The notes beneath the pieces were generated by a model. That model saw only the letters and a program-made list of their open reading frames with translations, did not search any database and was not told where the DNA came from. A stretch of DNA of 64,000 nucleotides. It comes from Gulosibacter molinativorax (GTDB lineage Bacteria > Actinomycetota > Actinomycetes > Actinomycetales > Microbacteriaceae). The stretch is from assembly GCF_003010915.2 (NCBI RefSeq), contig NZ_CP028426.1, forward strand, positions 3,100,001-3,164,000, given 5' to 3'. The position numbers and the translations under genes are program-made. Of this stretch, positions 442 to 58,951 are shown piece by piece. Position 1 is the stretch's first letter; each line of letters starts with the position of its first letter.

Positions 442-712
442 CATTGCCGTTAGCGCTTGCCCTTGCTGGCACTTGGGCGGGGGTGAGCGTTACTGGCAAT
501 GGTGGCGTGGGAGAGCGGTGCTGTTTTGCGTGGCTAGTTCTGCGCCCATTGCCGCTAGCGCTTGCCCTTGCTGGCACTTGGGCGGGGGTGAGCGTTACCG
601 GCAATGGCGGCGTGGGAGAGCGGTGCTGTTTTGTGCGGCTAGTTCTGCGCCCATTGCCGCTAGCGCTTGCCCTTGCTGGCACTTGGGCGGGGGTGAGCGT
701 TACTGGCAATGG
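442..712. repeat. Family A palindromic repeat, three copies at a 105-bp period
   Basis: Copies start near 442, 547 and 652. Each core is about 61 bp, opens with CCATTGCC(G), closes with GGCAATGG, and has GTTAGCGCTT-like and AGCGTTAC-like arms, so it can fold as an imperfect hairpin. The 44 bp between cores is also repeated, except after the last copy. Related units occur at 2035-2376 and 40974-41034. The rest of 337-829 holds no gene I can support; short degenerate pieces of the same repeat run on to about 765. Confidence 0.9.
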
Positions 713-829
713 GGACCTGCGTGAGCGGCAATGTCGCGCGCTAGCCGCAATGCTGGCGTGGCCGACGACCGGCAGCCGGTGACCGACGACCGTCGAAAGC
801 GAACGCCGCACATCAAGATATGTCGGCGA

Positions 830-1834
830 TTACCCGATTGCAGCGTGATTCCACTGGAAGATATCCGTCCAGTTTGTGACCACGGGTTTCTTCATCGGCC
901 TCAACTCAAGAGTGGCCGTTGGCGGCGGCAGTAGCGCGGCACGTTGCTTTGCGCTGTCCCAGCGGTTCAGAAACGTCTGCTGTGATCGCAGCACATCCCA
1001 ATCCCAGCGTGTCAGCTCATGGTTCGTGTCACGCAAAGAGTTTTCACGACTTTTCTCGGCCATTACTGCATCCGCGGCCGATTGGCCTGGCTTCAAGAAC
1101 TTGCCGTATTTGACCTTCCCGTCAAACTCGCCGAGCAGACCGTCTCTCGTGCCGAAGTCTGTGCGACCAATAAACGTGCCATCACGAGCGATCACGGATG
1201 GTTGCTGTAATGGAAGCTCTATGCCAGCGCAGATGAAGTGGTATCTGCTCCAAGTCTCGGCATAACTCTCCGATCGATCACTCGCGTGTTCGACGGCCCA
1301 CCGTAAATGGCGACCGAAACGGTTGACGCTCACGAGCGGCTGGAGATCCACCTCCCGAGCTCGAGCTGCATCCGCCATAGCCAGTAGCTCGGGGAGGCTC
1401 AGCGTTCCGGCGAGATCCTGAATCGTACGAGTAATGCTCGTGCAGCGGATCCCCGCAACCTCGACAACCTCATCGGCGGCCAACTTCGCCTGGTGGGTGT
1501 GAGCCCACTCGCTCTTCGTAGATTTTGAGGCTCGCGTCACGTGTACGAGGTTCGGGATGCGTGAGTACAGCATTGGTAGACCGTGAAAGATCGCGGCACT
1601 GAGCCCGCTGATTACTGCGATCGGCGTGGATGCGGCTAGCCCTATGATTTTCGCTGCATGCCAAGATTCCTGGGAGACGTCATCAGGTTCGGTGCCCTGC
1701 AAGTCCAGATATGCGCCACGATGAATGCGTGTCCATTCGTGACGCTTTGCGGTGCGGTGCAATGGCGGCACCGGCGTGACCGATTTCGAGATGTCCCTAG
1801 CAAGGATGATATTCACGCAGCCAGTTGAGTACAT
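830..1834 (-). CDS. AbiEi-like / DUF559-type protein, orphan
   Basis: A 334-residue protein with the architecture of actinobacterial AbiEi-family proteins. The N-terminal segment resembles the winged-helix part (HEWTRIHRGAYLDL, about residues 32-45). A middle TSITRTIQDLAG motif (about 132-143) is typical of these proteins. The C-terminal domain resembles the DUF559/Vsr-like nuclease fold, with IGRTDF and GEFDGKVKY near residues 230-250. AbiEi is the antitoxin of type IV abortive-infection systems, but no AbiEii nucleotidyltransferase toxin gene is adjacent on either strand. Base composition is visibly less GC-rich than the neighbours, and family A repeats flank the gene on both sides, which suggests transfer. 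The start is uncertain because no clear ribosome site precedes it. Confidence 0.7.
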   Translation of the reverse strand: MYSTGCVNIILARDISKSVTPVPPLHRTAKRHEWTRIHRGAYLDLQGTEPDDVSQESWHAAKIIGLAASTPIAVISGLSAAIFHGLPMLYSRIPNLVHVTRASKSTKSEWAHTHQAKLAADEVVEVAGIRCTSITRTIQDLAGTLSLPELLAMADAARAREVDLQPLVSVNRFGRHLRWAVEHASDRSESYAETWSRYHFICAGIELPLQQPSVIARDGTFIGRTDFGTRDGLLGEFDGKVKYGKFLKPGQSAADAVMAEKSRENSLRDTNHELTRWDWDVLRSQQTFLNRWDSAKQRAALLPPPTATLELRPMKKPVVTNWTDIFQWNHAAIG

Positions 1835-2034: not shown

Positions 2035-2376
2035 CCATTGCCGGTAGCGCTTTGCCGGGCCTGAGGACGGGCAATGGTTGGCGTTAGGGGTAGGGGGTGG
2101 CGGTGCGGGCGTGGGGTTGGCGGCGCGTCCATTGCCGGTAGCGCTTTGCCGGGCCTGAGGACGGGCAATGGTTGGCGTTAGGGGTAGGGGGTGGCGGTGC
2201 GGGCGTGGGGTTGGCGGCGCGTCCATTGCCGGTAGCGCTTTGCCGGGCCTGAGGACAGGCAAGGGTGGGCGTTAGCGGTAGGGGTGGCGGTGCGTGCGTG
2301 GGGTTGGCGGCGCATCCATTGCAGGTAGCGCTCGCCCTTGCGCGCATACGAGCAAGGGCGAGTGCTTGCGGCAATG
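2035..2376. repeat. Family A palindromic repeat, four copies at a 93-94-bp period
   Basis: Units start at 2035, 2129, 2223 and 2316. The first three are nearly identical and carry CCATTGCCGGTAGCGCTTTG followed about 20 bases later by GGGCAATGG or a close variant. The fourth is divergent and ends in GCGGCAATGCC. The terminal arms match the array at 442-712, though the internal sequence differs. The stretch 1905-2034 before the array shows no gene. Confidence 0.9.
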
Positions 2377-4549: not shown

Positions 4550-6283
4550 ATGCTTTGGAAATTACTCGTGCAGTATTTGCGCCCGAGTTGGCGCTTTGTC
4601 GTTGGGGTGCTGGTATTCCAGTTCCTGCAGGCGTTAGGCGCACTGTATCTTCCCACGCTCAACGCCGACATCATTAACAAAGGTGTGGCCGTCGGGGACG
4701 TCGGCTACATCTGGCGCACGGGCTCGTTCATGTTACTCGTCGCTTTCTTGCAGGTCGTGGCGAACATTATCGCGATCTGGTGCGGCGCGCGCGCCGCGAT
4801 GCGCGCCGGTCAGCTGATGCGTCGAGACGTATTCGACCACGTCGGCTCGTTCTCGGAGCGCGAGATCAGCCAGTTCGGTGCAGGCTCGCTCATCACCCGC
4901 AACACGAACGACGTGCAGCAGGTGCAGATGCTCATCTTCATGACCTGCACGATGATGGTCTCCGCCCCGATGCTCGCGATCGGCGGCGTGATCATGGCGC
5001 TGCGGCAGGATGTTGGGCTCAGCTGGATCATCGCGGCCGCGGCACCGATTCTGTTGCTTTTCGTCGGGTTCATTGTGTGGCGCATGGTGCCGCTGTTCAG
5101 CCGCTACCAGGAGCGTCTCGACAACATCAACCGCGTGCTGCGCGAGCAGCTCTCGGGCATCCGGGTCATCCGCGCGTTCGTGCGCGAGGACATCGAGCGT
5201 GACCGCTTCAAGGATGCGAACGAGAAGATCATGGAGACGGGTCGCCGAGTCGGTAACCTCTTCGTCGTCGTCTTCCCCGGCGCATCCATGGTGATGAACC
5301 TCGCGATCGTCGCCGTGATCTGGTTCGGCGGGATGCAGGTGGACCAGGGCGACGTGCAGATCGGTTCGCTGTTCGCCTACATCTCGTACGTGATGCAGAT
5401 CCTCATGGGCGTGATCATGGTGAGCTTCCTCACGATGATGATCCCGCGCGCGGCCGTGTGTGCCGACCGAATCGGCGAGGTGCTCGCAACCGACAGCTCG
5501 CTCAAGCTCGACGGCGCAGGCATCGCGACGCAGCCGCAGCCCGGCCTCGTCGAATTCGAGAGGGTCTCGTTCGCCTACCCCGGCGCCGAGCATCCCGTGC
5601 TCGAAGACGTTAACTTCCGCGCCGAGCCCGGCGAAACCGTCGCGGTGATCGGCTCGACCGGTTCCGGCAAAACGACGCTCGTTAACCTCGTCCCGCGGCT
5701 CTTCGACGCAACCTCGGGCGAGGTGCGCGTCGGCGGCGTGCCGGTGAAGGATGCGGAACCCGCGACCCTCTGGGGCTCAATCGGCCTCGTCCCGCAGCGA
5801 CCTTTCCTCTTCTCGGGGACCGTCGCATCCAACCTCGAGTTTGGGCGCGAGGGTGCGACCGAGGAAGAAATGTGGGCTGCACTCGAGATCGCACAGGCGG
5901 CCGACTTCGTGCGCGAGATGCCGGGCGCGCTCGACGCGAAGATCGCACAGGGCGGCACGAACGTCTCCGGCGGCCAGCGGCAGCGACTGTCGATTGCCCG
6001 GGCGATCATTCACCAACCGAAACTGCTCGTCTTCGACGACTCGTTCTCGGCGCTCGACCTCACGACGGATGCGAAGCTTCGCGCCGCGCTCTGGCGCGAG
6101 TTGCCGGAGGTGACGAAGCTCGTTGTCGCGCAGCGCGTGTCCACGATCATCGACGCCGACCGCATCATCGTGCTCGACGACGGCCGCATCGTCGGCACCG
6201 GCACCCACGACGAGCTGCTCGAGTCGAACACCACGTACCAAGAAATCGTCGAGTCGCAGCTTTCCGCGGAGGCACAGGCATGA
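4550..6283 (+). CDS. ABC exporter half-transporter A (degenerate ATP site)
   Basis: A 577-residue fused permease-ATPase of the MsbA/LmrA type. The N-terminal 300 residues contain about six membrane helices; the ATPase follows, with Walker A GSTGSGKTT near 368 and signature VSGGQRQR near 470. Walker B ends LLVFDDS: an aspartate replaces the catalytic glutamate. The switch position reads VAQR, so glutamine replaces histidine. Such changes mark the non-hydrolysing site of heterodimeric exporters like TM287/288. The start at 4550 has an AGAAGG ribosome site about 8 bases upstream. The stop overlaps the next start by 4 bp (ATGA), so the two halves are translationally coupled. The substrate is unknown; drugs, lipids or peptides are typical of the family. 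Confidence 0.93.
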   Translation: MLWKLLVQYLRPSWRFVVGVLVFQFLQALGALYLPTLNADIINKGVAVGDVGYIWRTGSFMLLVAFLQVVANIIAIWCGARAAMRAGQLMRRDVFDHVGSFSEREISQFGAGSLITRNTNDVQQVQMLIFMTCTMMVSAPMLAIGGVIMALRQDVGLSWIIAAAAPILLLFVGFIVWRMVPLFSRYQERLDNINRVLREQLSGIRVIRAFVREDIERDRFKDANEKIMETGRRVGNLFVVVFPGASMVMNLAIVAVIWFGGMQVDQGDVQIGSLFAYISYVMQILMGVIMVSFLTMMIPRAAVCADRIGEVLATDSSLKLDGAGIATQPQPGLVEFERVSFAYPGAEHPVLEDVNFRAEPGETVAVIGSTGSGKTTLVNLVPRLFDATSGEVRVGGVPVKDAEPATLWGSIGLVPQRPFLFSGTVASNLEFGREGATEEEMWAALEIAQAADFVREMPGALDAKIAQGGTNVSGGQRQRLSIARAIIHQPKLLVFDDSFSALDLTTDAKLRAALWRELPEVTKLVVAQRVSTIIDADRIIVLDDGRIVGTGTHDELLESNTTYQEIVESQLSAEAQA

Positions 6284-8496
6284 GCGAGAACAAATCACCG
6301 AAGAAGTCGAACGCACCGGTTGAGGAAGAGTTTGACGAGGAAGCGGCTGCGGCGGCGGCTTCGGCCGGTGCTGGGATGGGGGACGGCTCCGGCGACACCC
6401 GTCCGGCCGAGCACTTCTGGCCGAGTTTCAAGCGACTGCTCGGATTGCTCAAGCCGTGGGCCTGGGTCTTCGGCATCGCGACGCTGCTCGGAATCATCTG
6501 GGTGATTCTCACCGTAACGGCACCAAAGCTGCTGGGTGAAGCGACCAACATCATCTTTGAGGGCGTCATTTCTTCGCAAATGCCCGAAGGCGCAACGCAA
6601 CAACAAGTGGCCGACGGACTGCGCGCATCCGGCCAAGAAGATTTCGCGAACATGGTCGAGGCCATGAAGAACCTTGTGCCGGGGCAAGGCGTCGACTTTT
6701 ACGCGCTCTCGCAGATGCTGCTGCTCACGCTCGGCGTCTACGCGCTCGCGAACATTTTCGACTGGGCTTCCGGGTACCTGCTGAACCAGGTTGTCGTGAA
6801 GGCGATGTTTGGCCTGCGCCGCAGCGTGGAGGAGAAGATTCACCGCCTACCGCTGAGCTACTTCGACCGCGTGAAGCGGGGCGAGCTGCTCAGCCGCGTC
6901 ACGAACGACGTCGACAACATCACGAATGCGCTGCAGCAGTCGCTGATCTACGCGATCACGTCGCTGCTCACCGTAATCGGTGTGCTCGTGATGATGTTCT
7001 CGATCTCGTGGTCGCTCGCGCTCGTCGCGCTGGTCGTGCTGCCGATTACCGGCGGTATCTTCGCGGTGATCGGGCCGCGCTCGCAGAAGAACTTTGCGAA
7101 GCAGTGGAAGGCCACCGGAAAGCTGAACAGCCGCGTCGAGGAGTCGTTCTCGGGCCACGCGCTCGTGCGCGTCTACGGTCGCGAGGATGACATCCGCGAG
7201 CGGTTCGCGACGGAGAACAACGAGCTGTACGAGGCATCGTTCAAGGCGCAGTTCCTCTCGGGCATGATGATGCCGCTGATGATGTTCGCAGGCAACCTGG
7301 CCTACGTCGGCATCGCAGTGCTCGGTGGTCTGCAGGTCGCGAGCGGGCAGATTCGCCTCGGCGACGTGCAGGCGTTCATTCAGTACTCGCAACAGTTCAC
7401 GCAGCCGCTCGCACAGCTCGGCGGCATGGCGACGACCGTGCAGTCCGCGACTGCTTCAGCGGAGCGTGTCTTCGAACTGCTTGATGCAGAGGAAGAGGAA
7501 CCGGATGCGGACGACGCCCCGGAACTCGTCCCCGGCCCCGGCCGCATCGAGTTTAAGGACGTGCAGTTCTCCTACGACCCGGAGCGCGAGCTCATTCGCG
7601 ACCTGAACTTCTCGGTTGAGCCTGGGCAAACGGTCGCGATCGTTGGCCCGACCGGTGCCGGCAAGACGACGCTCGTGAACCTCATCATGCGGTTCTACGA
7701 GCTCGACGGCGGCGCAATCGAGCTGGATGGGCAGGTCACCGGCGAACTTCGCCGTCACGACGTGCGCGCCCGCACCGGCATGGTGCTGCAGGATCCGTGG
7801 CTGTTCCAGGGTTCGATTCTTGAAAACATCCGCTACGGACGACAGGATGCATCGGACGATGAGGTGCGCGCGGCCGCGGAAGCGACGTTCGTGGATCGCT
7901 TCGTTCGGCAGCTGCCTGAGGGGTACGAGACCGTGCTCGACGAGGAGGCCTCGAATGTATCCGCGGGTGAGAAGCAGCTCATCACGATCGCTCGCGCGTT
8001 CGTGGCGGATCCCGCCGTGCTCATCCTCGATGAGGCGACGAGCTCGGTCGACACCCGCACCGAGTTGCTGCTGCAGCACGCGATGAACGCGCTGCGCGAG
8101 GGGCGCACGAGCTTCGTGATCGCGCACCGCCTGTCGACCATCCGCGACGCCGACCTCATCCTCGTGATGGAGAACGGCCGCATCGTGGAGAAGGGCAATC
8201 ACGAGTCACTGCTCGCGGCCGAGGGTGCGTACTGGCGCCTGTACCAGTCGCAGTTCGCGGGCGCCGCGGTCGATCTCGACGCGGAAGAAGCCGCGTTGAC
8301 GGGGGCCGTGCCCGTGGTGACTGGGGCTGTTGGGGCTGCTGTTGCTGTTGAGGGCGGGGCCGCTGGGGCTGGGTCGGCCAGCGGTGGGCCTGCTGGTGGT
8401 GGGCCTGCTGCAACCGGGGGCGTGCCGACGGTTCCGGGTGCACCCGGTGGGCCCACGACCGGGCCGATCCCGCTGCCGGGCGGCGGCTCGGAGTAG
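6280..8496 (+). CDS. ABC exporter half-transporter B (consensus ATP site)
   Basis: A 738-residue partner of the preceding half-transporter. The start is set by the 4-bp overlap at 6280 and by a hydrophilic acidic N-terminus; longer open frames upstream are antisense-like artefacts. An N-terminal extension of about 50 residues precedes the membrane domain. The ATPase has Walker A GPTGAGKTT, an unusual signature VSAGEKQ, Walker B LILDEAT with the catalytic glutamate, and switch histidine in VIAHRLST. Together with subunit A it should form one active and one degenerate ATP site. After the ATPase comes a tail of roughly 75 residues very rich in Gly, Ala, Pro and Val, absent from typical family members. 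No gene follows for about 730 bp; repeats begin soon after the stop. Confidence 0.93.
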   Translation: MSENKSPKKSNAPVEEEFDEEAAAAAASAGAGMGDGSGDTRPAEHFWPSFKRLLGLLKPWAWVFGIATLLGIIWVILTVTAPKLLGEATNIIFEGVISSQMPEGATQQQVADGLRASGQEDFANMVEAMKNLVPGQGVDFYALSQMLLLTLGVYALANIFDWASGYLLNQVVVKAMFGLRRSVEEKIHRLPLSYFDRVKRGELLSRVTNDVDNITNALQQSLIYAITSLLTVIGVLVMMFSISWSLALVALVVLPITGGIFAVIGPRSQKNFAKQWKATGKLNSRVEESFSGHALVRVYGREDDIRERFATENNELYEASFKAQFLSGMMMPLMMFAGNLAYVGIAVLGGLQVASGQIRLGDVQAFIQYSQQFTQPLAQLGGMATTVQSATASAERVFELLDAEEEEPDADDAPELVPGPGRIEFKDVQFSYDPERELIRDLNFSVEPGQTVAIVGPTGAGKTTLVNLIMRFYELDGGAIELDGQVTGELRRHDVRARTGMVLQDPWLFQGSILENIRYGRQDASDDEVRAAAEATFVDRFVRQLPEGYETVLDEEASNVSAGEKQLITIARAFVADPAVLILDEATSSVDTRTELLLQHAMNALREGRTSFVIAHRLSTIRDADLILVMENGRIVEKGNHESLLAAEGAYWRLYQSQFAGAAVDLDAEEAALTGAVPVVTGAVGAAVAVEGGAAGAGSASGGPAGGGPAATGGVPTVPGAPGGPTTGPIPLPGGGSE

Positions 8497-8529
8497 TCAG
8501 GGACGGCTGGGGCGCTGCGCGCTTTCGCC

Positions 8530-8655
8530 GATGCTGCGCGCCGACAGCGCTCACCGACAGCGCTCACCGACAGTGCTCATCGACAGTGCTCGCTGACAGT
8601 GCTCATCGACAGCATTCGTCGACAGTGCTCATCGACAGCACTGGCCGAGAGCACT
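8530..8655. repeat. 13-bp tandem repeat, about nine copies
   Basis: GACAG recurs at 8543, 8556, 8569, 8582, 8595, 8608, 8621 and 8634, exactly 13 bp apart, followed by GAGAG at 8647. The unit is close to CGACAGTGCTCAT. No open frame that looks coding runs through it. Confidence 0.9.
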
Positions 8656-8665
8656 CTCCGAAATT

Positions 8666-8775
8666 GGTCACGGAGCGGGGTTATCGCTCCCGTTAACCCC
8701 GCTCCGTGACCAGCCCTGGGAGGGAAACCCCAATGAGTGACCAATTTGCGTTTTCACCCTCCGCAAATTGGTCAC
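8666..8775. repeat. Family C palindromes (GGTCAC arms), two hairpins
   Basis: The first is a perfect 18-bp inverted repeat: GGTCACGGAGCGGGGTTA at 8666-8683 with its complement at 8694-8711, around a 10-base loop. The second pairs GTGACCAATTTGCG (8737-8750) with its complement (8762-8775). Related sequences recur at 12322-12467 and 58191-58440. Confidence 0.88.
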
Positions 8776-8801
8776 TTCTTGTAGTTTCACCCGCCGCGGA
8801 C

Positions 8802-9227
8802 TGCATCCGGTGCCGAGTTTGCGAGATGCGCCGCGCAGGCACGTCGCTCGATGTATTCGCGATGCCTCCGACTGCATCCGGTGACGGGTTTGCATGACGT
8901 CCTTCGTAGATTCGTCGTTGGATGCGCTTCTTGCGCTGCCGAGTGCATCGGGTGCCGGGTTTGCGAGACGTCCTTTGCAGGTCCGTCGTTGGATGCGTTT
9001 CTGGCGCGGCCGACTGCATCCGGTGACGGGTTTGCGGGACACTCTCGGCAGAGTCGTCGCCCGATGTACTCGCGATGCCGCGGCGTGCATCCGGTGCCGG
9101 GCTTGCGGGACGTCCTTCGTAGAGTCGTCGCTGGATGCGATGCTCCCGCCGCGGTGTGCATCCGGTGCCGGGTTTGCGGGACGCGTTCGGCAGAGTCGTC
9201 GTTAGATGTAGTTCCGCAACGCGCTCA
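8802..9227. repeat. Family B 71-bp tandem repeat, six units
   Basis: The phrase TGCATCCGGTG(A/C)CGGGTTTG, or a close variant, starts at 8802, 8873, 8944, 9015, 9086 and 9157: exact 71-bp steps. Each unit carries a second arm ending in GGATGC or GATGTA about 45 bases later, so every unit can form a hairpin. The last unit touches the 3' end of maf. The same 71-bp step occurs at 12213 and 58460-58790. Confidence 0.92.
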
Positions 9228-9878
9228 GGATGCGGCGCCCGGGCGATTCCACAACGCCGGCCAATCGTAGCCCAGCTGGCGAGTCAAATTCCGCACCACC
9301 GGCAACGAGATGCCGATCACCGTCGAGGGGTCGCCCGAGATCCGCTCGATGAATGCGCCACCGAGCGAGTCGATCGTGAACGCGCCCGCGACCCAGAGCG
9401 GCTCACCCGACGAAATGTACTGCTCAATCTCGTAGTCGCTCAGGTCATCGACGAACGTAACCTCCGCCGACTTCACCGCACCCACGCCCTCGTCCGCGGC
9501 GACGTGACCCGACGCATCCACGGTGCGATCGACGAGCCAGTGCCCCGACCACAGCGTGCCAGTACGGCCGCGTTGCATTTCCCAACGCTCGCGGGCGACT
9601 TCGGGGGAGCCAGGCTTGCCGTAAATCTCGCCGTCGATCTCGAACATCGAATCGCCGCCGAGCACGAGGCCGTCGTGCGCATCCCGCTCTTCGCCATCGG
9701 CGACGGCGAGCGCCTTCGCTCGTGCGAGCGTCAGCACCGTCTCTGCCGGTGTCAACGGGCCGTTCGAGGCGAGGACCGCATCCTCGTCGACCGACGATGG
9801 GCGGACCACGGGCTCAATGCCGGCGTTGCGAAGCACGTCGAGGCGGGCGGGGGACGTCGAGGCGAGGATGAGACGCAT
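9225..9878 (-). CDS. maf: Maf-family nucleoside triphosphate pyrophosphatase
   Basis: A 217-residue Maf/YhdE-type protein, which hydrolyses non-canonical or excess nucleoside triphosphates to monophosphates in the cytoplasm. The N-terminus LILASTSPARLDVLR is the family signature (S-x-S-x-x-R-x-x-L), followed by VDED near residue 33. LVLGGDSMFEIDG (about 75) is the conserved GxD segment. Near the C-terminus IDSLGGAFIERISGDPSTVIG matches the family block. I chose the ATG at 9878 because it begins directly at the first strand; longer frames upstream lie antisense to the next gene. The stop is inside the last 71-bp repeat unit. In mycobacteria maf also lies near accE and accD. Confidence 0.93.
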   Translation of the reverse strand: MRLILASTSPARLDVLRNAGIEPVVRPSSVDEDAVLASNGPLTPAETVLTLARAKALAVADGEERDAHDGLVLGGDSMFEIDGEIYGKPGSPEVARERWEMQRGRTGTLWSGHWLVDRTVDASGHVAADEGVGAVKSAEVTFVDDLSDYEIEQYISSGEPLWVAGAFTIDSLGGAFIERISGDPSTVIGISLPVVRNLTRQLGYDWPALWNRPGAAS

Positions 9879-10924: not shown

Positions 10925-12199
10925 GTGACTGAACCAACCGCATCCAGCCCCGAACTCACCGAGGGCGACATTGTCGAACTCACCGTCGGTGAAGTTGCCC
11001 ACGGCGGCATTTTCGTCGCCCGCCACGACTCGGGCCGGGTGGTGTTCGTTTCGGACGCGTTGCCCGGCGAGCGCGTGCGCGCCGAGATCAGCGAGGTGAA
11101 GAAACGCTTCGCGCGCGCCGAGACGCTCGAGGTGCTCGACGCATCCAGCGAGCGGCTCGAACATGTCTGGCCCGAGGCCGACGTCTCGCGTGCTCCCGAT
11201 GACCGCCCCGGCGGCGCCGAATTCGGCCACACTTCGGTGGCGTTTGGCCGCGAACTGAAACGTCGCGTCTTGGCGGATGCGCTCGCTCGCTTCGGCGGCG
11301 TCGAGCCGGAGTTTGAGGTTTCAAGTCTCGGGAACGACGACGAAACTCGCGGCACCGGCTGGCGCACTCGCGTCACGCTGCACGTTGACGACGACGGCCG
11401 CGTCGGGCCGTTCGCCGCGCGCTCGCACCGGGTCGTGGATGTCCGCAGCCTGCCACTCGCGTTCCCCGATATCGACGAGCTGGCGCAGCAGATCATCGCG
11501 AAGGGCCACCGCGGCCCCGGGCGCATCGATTTCGTCGCCCCGGCAGACTTCGAGGTGCGGATGCGCGCTCGAGTCAAGGGCGCATCCACGCGTAAGCCCG
11601 AGCTGCTTCGGGAGCGCGTGGGCGAGCGCGAGTTTGCCGTCTCGGAAGACGGCTTCTGGCAGGTGCACCGGCTCGCGGCCGTGACGCTGTACGACGCCGT
11701 GCAGGATGCGATCGATCGTTCGCGCTTCGACGTTTCGGCGCAGCACTTCGACCTGTTCGGTGGCGTCGGACTTCTCGGCGCCGCCGTCGCGGAGCTCGCG
11801 GGTAAGGATGCGCGGGTCGAGTCGGTCGAGGACGCGAAGGAAGCGACGGAACTCGCCCTGACGAACCTCGCCGAGTGGGGCGGGGCCACGGCGAAGACCG
11901 GCCGCGTCGATCGATACCTGCACGGCCTGCTCGACTCGGGCGCGGATGCCCTGGCGGCGGCTCGCGCGGGGACGGTCGTGTTAGACCCGCCGCGCTCAGG
12001 CGCGAAGGCGGACGTGACCGAGCCGTTGGCTGAGCTCGCTCCTGCGCAGATCGTGTACGTCGCGTGTGATCCGGTTGCGCTCGGGCGCGACACCGGGCTC
12101 TTGCGGGAGCGCGGCTACGAGCTCACGCGCTTGCGCTCGTACGATCTCTTCCCGAACACGCATCACGTCGAGGCCGTCGCGACGTTCGTACGCGCTTAG
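10925..12199 (+). CDS. TRAM-domain class I RNA (uracil-5-) methyltransferase, COG2265
   Basis: A 424-residue S-adenosylmethionine-dependent RNA methyltransferase of the RumA/TrmA group, which makes 5-methyluridine in rRNA or tRNA. An N-terminal TRAM RNA-binding domain (about 12-70, GDIVELTVGEVAHGG) is followed by the methyltransferase core. The AdoMet-binding segment FDLFGGVGLLGAAVAEL lies near 275. VVLDPPRSG lies near 350. The catalytic cysteine sits in VYVACDPVALGRD near 375. The GTG at 10925 is chosen because it begins just before the TRAM domain and 10 bp after the upstream stop; the longer frame overlaps the membrane gene. No Fe-S cysteine cluster of the E. coli RlmD type is obvious, so rRNA versus tRNA target is undecided. 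Confidence 0.88.
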   Translation: MTEPTASSPELTEGDIVELTVGEVAHGGIFVARHDSGRVVFVSDALPGERVRAEISEVKKRFARAETLEVLDASSERLEHVWPEADVSRAPDDRPGGAEFGHTSVAFGRELKRRVLADALARFGGVEPEFEVSSLGNDDETRGTGWRTRVTLHVDDDGRVGPFAARSHRVVDVRSLPLAFPDIDELAQQIIAKGHRGPGRIDFVAPADFEVRMRARVKGASTRKPELLRERVGEREFAVSEDGFWQVHRLAAVTLYDAVQDAIDRSRFDVSAQHFDLFGGVGLLGAAVAELAGKDARVESVEDAKEATELALTNLAEWGGATAKTGRVDRYLHGLLDSGADALAAARAGTVVLDPPRSGAKADVTEPLAELAPAQIVYVACDPVALGRDTGLLRERGYELTRLRSYDLFPNTHHVEAVATFVRA

Positions 12200-12212: not shown

Positions 12213-12330
12213 TGCATCGAGCGACGGGCTTGCGGGGGTGGTTTGGTAGGCGGGTCGCTGGATGCACTTCACGGCGCCGAGAATGCATTGAGCGACGGAT
12301 TTGCGCGTGGACGGCGCGGAGGAATGGTCA
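12213..12330. repeat. Family B 71-bp repeat, two units
   Basis: TGCATCGAGCGACGGGCTTG at 12213 and TGCATTGAGCGACGGATTTG at 12284 are exactly 71 bp apart and match the units at 8802 and 58531. GGTCGCTGGATGCA-like second arms follow. No gene is visible in 12200-12536; it is filled by this repeat and family C. Confidence 0.88.
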
Positions 12331-12467
12331 CAAAGCGGGGCAGCGCTCGAGGAATGGTCACGCGTCGGGGTTTTGCGTACGCATATCCCCGGTATGCGAC
12401 CAATCCTCGGAGGCTAACCCCGGTATGCGACCAATCCTCGGAGGGACTCCCAATTTGTGACCAATCC
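12322..12467. repeat. Family C palindromes (GGTCAC / GACCAATCC arms)
   Basis: GGTCAC occurs at 12326 and 12356, each followed by CGGGG. Inverse arms GCGACCAATCCTCGGAG occur twice at about 12396 and 12426 (30 bp apart), and GTGACCAATCC at about 12458. The arrangement is the same mix as at 8666-8775 and 58191-58440, again directly beside family B units. Confidence 0.85.
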
Positions 12468-12536
12468 GGCAGGAATGGGTATCCACGACAGAGGCAACCA
12501 GCAATTAAGCTGTGCGCCGCTAGCCCGGTAAACCCG

Positions 12537-40973: not shown

Positions 40974-41034
40974 CATTGCCAGTAGGGCTTGCCCTTGCCT
41001 GTGTACGGGGCGGGCCTGGCGTTACCTGCAATGG
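40974..41034. repeat. Family A palindromic repeat, single copy
   Basis: CATTGCCAGTAGGGCTTGCC opens the element at 40974 and TGGCGTTACCTGCAATGG closes it, with a 61-bp span equal to the cores at 442-712. It lies just after manB. Confidence 0.82.
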
Positions 41035-41126
41035 CGGGATGCGCTAACGGCAAGGGTGAGTGCGTTGTACAATCCCGTGCTGCGCCGGGCGCGAACGCGC
41101 AGCCTTCATGGGGCACAATAGGCCGT

Positions 41127-53675: not shown

Positions 53676-53720
53676 CTGGATGTACATCGAGTGACGGGCT
53701 TGCGGCAAAGGGCGAGTGCA
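53676..53720. repeat. Family B repeat, single degenerate unit
   Basis: TGTACATCGAGTGACGGGCT followed by TGCGG matches the left arm of the 71-bp units. It is the only copy in the window not in an array. The remaining bases to 53817 should hold the promoter of the ABC operon. Confidence 0.65.
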
Positions 53721-58190: not shown

Positions 58191-58440
58191 TGGTCACGGT
58201 GCGGGGTTTTCCCGACTGATGGCGCCCGAGTAGCGGTGCTCGCATCCAAAGATTGGTCACGTTTCGGGGTTTGTGTGGGAGGGCTGGTCACGTTTCGGGG
58301 TTTGTGCGGGAAGGCTGGTCACGTTTTGGGGTTTGGGTGGGAGGGCTGGTCACGTTTCGGGGTTTGTGTGGGAGGGCTGGTCACATTTCGGGGTTATATG
58401 CCCTCATAACCCCGACATTCGACCAATCCTCTGAGGGTGC
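58191..58440. repeat. Family C repeat with a 31-bp tandem array (five copies)
   Basis: GGTCACGTTTCGGGGTTTGT starts at 58255, 58286, 58317, 58348 and 58379 (minor changes), exact 31-bp steps, preceded by a GGTCAC-type unit at 58194. The last unit turns into a palindrome: CGGGGTTATATGCCCTCATAACCCCG. An inverse arm with GACCAATCCTC then appears near 58421. The sequence 58087-58190 shows no gene. Confidence 0.9.
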
Positions 58441-58459: not shown

Positions 58460-58790
58460 GCGCATCCAATGACGGATTTGAGGGGTGCCCGCCATAAATC
58501 GGTCATTCGATGCCCCCGCCACAGACGGATTGCATTGAGCGACGGGTTTATGGGGAGGAGGCCGGAGGCTGGTCACTGGATGCACACCGCCGCGGGTGGA
58601 TTGCATTGAGCGACGGGTTCGCGGAGGTGTGGCCGGAGGCTGGTCACTCGATGCACTCTGCTGAGCGGAGACTGCATCGAGTGACGGGTTTGGGGGAGGG
58701 CGCGTGCAGGCTGGTCACTGGATGCACTCCTGGTGCCCAGGATTGCATCGCGCGACGGATTTGCGAAGTGGGGGAGCTCGCCGCAGCGCC
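58460..58790. repeat. Family B 71-bp tandem repeat, five units
   Basis: Left arms TGCATTGAGCGACGGGTTTA and variants start at 58531, 58602, 58673 and 58744, with a degenerate first unit near 58460: 71-bp steps. In these units the second arm reads GGTCACTGGATGCA or GGTCACTCGATGCA, nearly the exact reverse complement of TGCATCGAGTGACGG, so each unit is a clear hairpin. Confidence 0.92.
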
Positions 58791-58951
58791 GCCGACCCGC
58801 AACGCGCAACCGCGACGCCGAAGCGCGACGCGCCGCCGACCCGCAACGCGCAACCGCGCCGCCGAAGCGCGATGCGCAGCCGCGACGCCGATCCGCAACG
58901 CTGAACCGCGACGCGCAGCCGCGACGCGCACCCGCGACGCCAGCCGGCCCA
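58791..58951. repeat. GC-rich simple repeat, 44-bp and shorter periods
   Basis: GCCGACCCGCAACGCGCAAC starts at 58791 and again at 58835, and degenerate CGCGACGCC/CGCAGCCGCGA words fill the rest up to the stop codon of the MBL gene. No credible coding frame. Confidence 0.8.

What the first reader, a model, noticed from the sequence alone, without database searches (positions are those of the whole stretch)
8802..9227. 71-bp hairpin units arrayed at three separate loci
Exact 71-bp tandem steps occur at 8802-9227 (six units), 12213-12330 (two) and 58460-58790 (five), with one stray unit at 53676. Each unit carries TGCATC(C/G)xGTGACGG and a distal arm close to its reverse complement, so each can fold alone. 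The same period at distant sites with diverged sequence means the unit length is conserved, which a random tandem expansion would not explain. This looks like a REP/BIME-like family, and I know of no description for this group. Possible roles are a transposase-mobilised element, transcript ends, or nucleoid-protein sites.
Basis: seen in the sequence. Interest (0 to 1): 0.7.

Follow-up and report, generated by a model that had tools for sequence, protein, structure and literature searches.

The report
Dispersed palindromes paired with AbiEi-Vsr nuclease genes
The 71-bp repeats are pairs of inverted 22-bp sites scattered between the genes of a Gulosibacter bacterium; they also sit on both sides of the gene for a nuclease that probably recognises them, and similar gene-plus-repeat pairs turn up in other actinobacteria, which points to an undescribed counterpart of REP repeats and their transposases.

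Summary
The repeats are real and genome-wide. The unit is a 22-bp arm in alternating orientation, with gaps of 17 bp (inside a hairpin unit) and 10 bp (between units), which sum to 71. A model finds 120 matches, counting both strands, in 23 intergenic gaps, 12 of them convergent. The sister species G. chungangensis has its own version (18 + 10 = 72 bp), at the same site in the six loci compared. Arm changes are not compensatory: paired arms match less than shuffles do, so this is not an RNA-stem family. No RAYT gene was found in 11 Gulosibacter.

The unexpected result is a partner. A ~320-aa protein (AbiEi-like fold plus Vsr/homing-endonuclease-like nuclease) is encoded 22 kb left of the window, flanked on both sides by these arrays. 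The genome's only other homologue (E up to 1e-6) lies in the window (830-1834), flanked on both sides by a second repeat family. The pattern generalises: 18 of 38 further such genes share a 14-nt word between their flanks, against 3 of 231 control genes. AbiEi antitoxins bind inverted 23-bp repeats, a like geometry. I propose a REPIN/RAYT-like system with an unrelated enzyme. Recognition is likely; nuclease-driven spread is inferred, not shown.

The parts
8802..9210 (+). 71-bp array 1: 12 arms (six hairpin periods), between an ABC-transporter gene (6280-8496 +) and maf (9225-9878 -), convergent
   Evidence: the syntenic ABC/maf gap in G. chungangensis is 32 bp by gene calls, and the 11-kb locus has no half-site match
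8729..8783 (.). two degenerate arms (+ then -) just before array 1, at proper spacing
   Evidence: scores 17.7 and 17.8; one search match 3108762-3108823, E 1.4e-6 and 3.1e-5 on the two strands
12213..12305 (+). 71-bp array 2: 3 arms, convergent gap after a TRAM-domain methyltransferase gene (10925-12199)
   Evidence: orthologous arrays in G. chungangensis C1:73929-74134 and 68209-68302
53683..53704 (+). single arm, 76 bp after the catalase gene
58461..58765 (+). 71-bp array 3: 9 arms, convergent gap
830..1834 (-). second AbiEi-Vsr-type gene of the genome (334 aa): AbiEi-like N-terminus, weak similarity to the nuclease part of gene 1; no Pfam match
   Evidence: E 6.4e-7; no Pfam family; PADLOC AbiEi 1.2e-12; hhalign 95.5%, E 1.5e-8
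442..752 (.). second repeat family (arms CATTGCCGSTAGCGCTT, inverted at 43 bp, 105-bp period), left flank of gene 830-1834
2036..2376 (.). second repeat family, 94-bp period, right flank of gene 830-1834
40974..41055 (.). further, weaker copy of the second repeat family (2 to 4 mismatches)

Best explanation
The arrays are double-stranded DNA recognition sites of a two-domain protein encoded at G000:C1:3076825-3077787, about 22 kb left of the window. Its N-terminal AbiEi-like domain binds the 22-bp arms as inverted pairs at a fixed, nearly two-turn spacing; its C-terminal Vsr/EDxHD-type nuclease domain acts at or near them. The protein and its palindromes form a pair that has spread and is kept uniform within each genome, much as RAYT transposases and REPINs are thought to. 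Most likely the nuclease nicks or cuts at its sites and repair copies or tandemly duplicates units, so arms stay uniform while spacers drift. Shown by computation: dispersal, fixed spacing, arms better conserved than spacers, both-sided flanking of the gene, and generality. Inferred: binding, cutting, and cutting-driven spread.
Confidence: 0.65

Rival explanations
1. Operator/regulon: the palindromes are only binding sites (autoregulation plus a structural or regulatory role elsewhere); the nuclease domain does not drive their spread.
For: AbiEi-type antitoxins autoregulate through inverted 23-bp repeats (PMC7319586, passages); fixed spacing and conserved arms fit pure binding.
Against: Sites lie mostly behind genes, not at promoters: 12 of 23 occupied gaps are convergent and 2 divergent, against 9 and 23 of 82 unoccupied gaps (p 7e-5 for convergent). 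The gene carries full elements on both sides. A six-period array exists at a site empty in the sister species.
Confidence: 0.2
2. RNA-level element: terminator or mRNA-end hairpin spread by chance or selection.
For: 3'-end and convergent placement; units fold better than shuffles, mean z -2.1 to -3.3.
Against: Arm changes are anti-compensatory; a preferred G/C mismatch at position 7; loop length fixed while loop sequence varies; no Rfam match at gathering score.
Confidence: 0.08
3. Passive association: repeat families amplified by something else accumulate around a tolerant, frequently exchanged gene.
For: The 20 genomes carry 1 to 11 homologues each, so the gene is common and variable.
Against: The repeat differs from gene to gene and stays with the gene; both genes of the own genome have different repeats. 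Flank similarity is high among the closest proteins (27 pairs at 45% identity or more: mean 26.4 vs 11.3 in the reversed null), but only 9 of these 27 reach a score of 14 and three orthologous-looking loci drive the mean; below 45% the excess over the null is small.
Confidence: 0.05
4. Classical REP/BIME mobilised by a RAYT (Y1) transposase.
For: Extragenic inverted doublets and arrays.
Against: No PF01797 hit in 11 of 11 Gulosibacter genomes searched, nor in G030, which carries 22 complete hairpins.
Confidence: 0.02

Closest known systems
REPIN/REP sequences with RAYT (TnpA-REP, Y1) transposases
   Same: Short extragenic palindromic doublets, singlets and tandem arrays; one repeat type per gene, found beside that gene; several independent types in one genome (PMC3116915, abstract and passages).
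   Different: The partner is an AbiEi-Vsr-type protein instead of an HUH transposase. The arm is a 22-bp half-site, and two inverted arms at fixed spacing look like a dsDNA site.
AbiEi antitoxin operators (type IV toxin-antitoxin AbiE; Rv2827c)
   Same: AbiEi-like fold; inverted 23-bp repeats, even tandem pairs of pairs (PMC7319586, passages).
   Different: There the repeats are a promoter operator of a toxin-antitoxin operon. Here the AbiEi-like part is fused to a nuclease, repeats lie on both sides of the gene and are dispersed, mostly behind genes.
Vsr / EDxHD homing endonucleases (I-Bth0305I)
   Same: Nuclease domain fold. The EDxHD label is recalled.
   Different: No intron, intein or split gene was seen; the dispersed part is a palindrome. 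Homing is not shown.
Caulobacter VsrA (DUF559) and the methyltransferase ScmA
   Same: DUF559/Vsr-like nuclease linked to a DNA-damage response of its own cell (PMC12907096, start of abstract and passages).
   Different: No repeat family mentioned in the passages seen.

Membership tests
REP/REPIN-RAYT | extragenic dispersed palindromic repeats, many as inverted doublets | tested here: met
REP/REPIN-RAYT | RAYT (Y1 HUH transposase, PF01797) in the genome | tested here: not met
   0 of 11 Gulosibacter; control rings in E. coli
REP/REPIN-RAYT | cognate gene flanked by its own repeat type | tested here: met
   met, but with an unrelated gene:
REP/REPIN-RAYT | excision or transposition of the repeat | not testable with these tools
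   only indirect: one array site empty in the sister species and one the other way round
AbiEi antitoxin | AbiEi fold | tested here: inconclusive
AbiEi antitoxin | partner nucleotidyltransferase toxin AbiEii next to it | not tested
   neighbours of gene 1 seen are a PEP-utilising-enzyme gene and an inserted IS21-type pair; no AbiEii search was made, gene 2 neighbours not scanned
Vsr/DUF559 nuclease | Vsr-like nuclease fold with conserved acidic residues | tested here: met
   (4 sequences); relatives match PF04480/PF18741, gene 1 itself matches no Pfam family
Homing endonuclease | spread into sites lacking the gene | not testable with these tools
   none
structured RNA element | compensatory base-pair changes | tested here: not met

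The most novel reading that the evidence does not exclude
Actinobacteria carry a large class of gene-plus-palindrome pairs in which each AbiEi-Vsr nuclease propagates and homogenises its own binding palindromes across the chromosome by nicking and repair: a REPIN-like parasite or domesticated system built on a toxin-antitoxin DNA-binding fold and a homing-endonuclease nuclease, with each pair speaking its own sequence dialect.
Probability: 0.4. Interest if true: 0.93.

Novelty: new variant of a known kind. Interest (0 to 1): 0.84.

Why it matters
To my knowledge most short repeat families of actinobacteria lack a known mobilising enzyme, and AbiEi-DUF559 proteins lack a known function. Pairing the two gives both a testable role. 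It would be a second, unrelated enzymatic solution to REP-type repeat spread, with many ready gene/site pairs for studying specificity and co-evolution of a long-site nuclease.

Tried and rejected
RAYT: none found. RNA stem: rejected by anti-covariation and no Rfam match. CRISPR-like guides: rejected by inspection, since spacers repeat inside an array. Strand-specific G-T wobbles: present on both strands, no clear bias. Insertion-sequence ends: outside the arrays only one isolated arm was found with up to 2 mismatches. Gene neighbours of arrays (not all neighbours scanned): mostly metabolic and housekeeping genes, no shared function apart from the nuclease gene. A 239-aa gene also lies between two arrays (3330299-3331716); it has no Pfam match and only insignificant NCBIfam lipoprotein matches and was not pursued. 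Phage records: no match to the protein; plasmid records: 4 with a match. Three Arthrobacter plasmid genes were checked: one clear both-sided case (ERGS1:01), one with a hairpin on one side only, one with a shared 15-mer and a hairpin on one side. Tree of 39 proteins: the GTC-ATGC dialect is not one clade (4 changes; 20 of 500 shuffles as low). The inverted-repeat scan of the rplQ region in the genus did not detect even the own imperfect array, so it says little; the absence in 8 other Gulosibacter rests on the dialect-specific model. In one search one hairpin (L212) was compared with the wrong genome and is ignored. L247 is invalid (contig end makes the flanks overlap): 22 of 44 becomes 21 of 43. 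In one search the gene starts were often overextended, so its many zero scores are not counts of absence. Literature: searches in an open-access library; the 14 papers naming DUF559 were seen as a listing with abstract starts (one, PMC12907096, also in passages), and none of those titles or abstract starts concerns such repeats. Subscription journals and preprints are not held.

Full report
WHAT IS THERE. The window is positions 3,100,001-3,164,000 of a 3.47-Mb chromosome. It lies in a Gulosibacter: same-genus relative G004 has a contig of the length of one of Gulosibacter chungangensis KCTC 13959, and G010 one of Gulosibacter sp. 10. The reported steps at 8802, 12213 and 58461 and the lone arm at 53683 are confirmed.

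The basic part is a 22-bp arm, roughly TGCATCSAGYGACGGRYYTGCG, in alternating orientation. Gaps alternate: 17 bp in 50 of 55 -/+ pairs, 10 bp in 37 of 48 +/- pairs. Genome-wide there are 56 pattern matches against 0 in the control and 120 model matches at E up to 0.1, counting both strands. The one search list of 129 arms comes from the fetched loci and includes a few weak single hits, some inside genes, which I do not count as members.

CONTEXT. Called gaps that hold arrays: 12 convergent, 9 tandem, 2 divergent. Gaps of 60 bp or more without arrays in the same loci: 9, 50 and 23 (convergent excess p 7e-5; a simple codon-usage gene caller of my own; two of the 23 sites are weak model matches and one holds a single arm). 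None of the 23 lies inside a called gene; one overlaps a gene end by 12 bp. Convergent/divergent counts are 7/3 of 18 arrays in G. chungangensis, 6/1 of 18 hairpins in G030 and 5/1 of 7 in G010.

NOT AN RNA FAMILY. Counting pairs on 41 and 31 units, paired cells are 77.9% and 76.4%, below shuffled means of 81.5% and 80.0%; all 500 shuffles reached at least the observed value. The cause is two arm types, with G or C at position 7, that face each other (own h10 p 7e-4, h17 p 0.004; G. chungangensis h18 p 0.01, its h10 p 1.0). Spacers are less conserved between arrays than arms (identity 0.50 vs 0.74 in the own genome) but not random (0.34), and their length hardly varies. That fits a protein reading two inverted sites on double-stranded DNA.

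CONCERTED CHANGE. G. chungangensis carries arrays at orthologous sites in six loci compared: a methionyl-tRNA-synthetase-type gene, an LTD-domain gene, the 2509074 locus, behind the L17 ribosomal protein gene, the TRAM-methyltransferase gene, and the nuclease locus. Its arms and spacing are its own: 18 + 10 = 72 bp, 18 in 41 of 42 pairs. Arms at orthologous sites are no more alike across species (0.619, 7 comparisons) than at other sites (0.612), and less alike than paralogues within a species (0.698 and 0.682). Sites also come and go. Conversely, its C18:41021-41280 array lies between two genes that overlap in the own genome. The own-dialect model finds nothing in 8 other Gulosibacter. An IS21-type element with a 6-bp target duplication sits inside one inter-unit gap at the nuclease locus; leaving it out, the gap is the usual 10 bp (read).

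WIDER FAMILY. Other genomes have solitary hairpins of the same plan, GTCRNNNRATGC - 19 to 21 bp - GCATYNNNYGAC, each with its own dialect. The pattern allowed gaps of 17-23; in 299 Microbacteriaceae genomes, 14 (the own one included) have a match and the reversed control has none; all listed matches have gaps of 19-21 (listing capped). Three of the single hits overlap or lie in called genes and may be chance (L212, L221, L223). G030 has 22 complete pairs, all with arms 35 bp apart; in the 16 printed, loops differ except in two neighbouring pairs.

THE PARTNER. The arrays at 3076462-3076696 and 3077802-3080770 flank a 320-aa gene on both sides. Its G. chungangensis orthologue (59% identical) is flanked by arrays on both sides; so are homologues in G010 and G070 and in G030 at 3232161-3233060. 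The own genome's only other homologue at E up to 1e-6 is in the window at 830-1834. It is flanked on both sides by a second dispersed family (CATTGCCGSTAGCGCTT; 70 matches vs 5 control, arms often inverted at 43 bp).

GENERALITY. One search gave 88 matches in 20 genomes; I fetched 40 more loci, most of the stronger ones, from 15 genomes. Leaving out one that belonged to the discovery set (L285) and one cut by a contig end (L247), 18 of 38 share an exact word of 14 nt or more between their 300-bp flanks, against 3 of 231 control genes (p 7e-15); 21 of 38 against 20 of 231 have an inverted repeat of score 16 or more (p 2e-10). The 38 include G030's L262, whose flanking hairpins I had noticed before the test. 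Controls are called genes of 250-420 aa from the named accD loci. A phylum search found strong homologues in 8 of 149 genomes, the own one included; 14 of 28 scorable loci of 29 share 14 nt or more, with rough gene ends and no separate control. Dispersed hairpins matched the same genome's gene flank in 5 of 9 genomes tested and did not in 4; for one of the two G171 hairpins an orthologous locus of G306 scored slightly higher (16.0 vs 15.0), and G090's hairpin matched the flank of the same-genus G209 gene. The closest proteins (27 pairs at 45% identity or more) have similar flanks on average (26.4 vs null 11.3), but only 9 of 27 pairs reach 14 and three orthologous-looking loci drive the mean. 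Database search lists 120 homologues at E up to 1e-10 among 8000 scored candidates.

MECHANISM. Most likely the AbiEi part reads the arm pair and the Vsr-like part nicks there, with repair-driven duplication and uniformity. Binding is well supported by inference, cutting moderately, spread least. It works like REPIN/RAYT but is not a member, because the RAYT is absent.

Noticed in passing
window 8666-8742, 12326-12470, 58192-58430: Third palindromic repeat family (GGTCAC..GGGG, 31-bp tandem units at 58254-58395), beside the three 71-bp arrays of the window; partner gene unknown.
   Followed up: partly
window 8528-8661 and 58786-58941: 13-bp and 13/26-bp tandem repeats next to arrays 1 and 3.
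   Followed up: no
G000:C1:3077966-3080638 (L037): IS21-type element inserted in an inter-unit gap of an array, 6-bp target duplication.
   Followed up: partly
G001:C2:246882-247820 and G009:C41:29662-30600: Homologues of the nuclease gene with in-frame stop codons in Gulosibacter genomes where the own-dialect model found no repeats.
   Followed up: no
G000:C1:3330524-3331243 (L040:4524-5243 -): A 239-aa gene without a Pfam match lies between two arrays.
   Followed up: partly
L317 (NZ_CP012477.1, Arthrobacter sp. ERGS1:01 plasmid): Hypothetical protein WP_054009319.1, a homologue, is flanked on both sides by hairpins sharing a 22-nt word.
   Followed up: partly
L249 (G006:C9:53338-54276): Homologue flanked by perfect 21- and 28-bp-arm hairpins of an unrelated dialect; dispersal in that genome not tested.
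   Followed up: no
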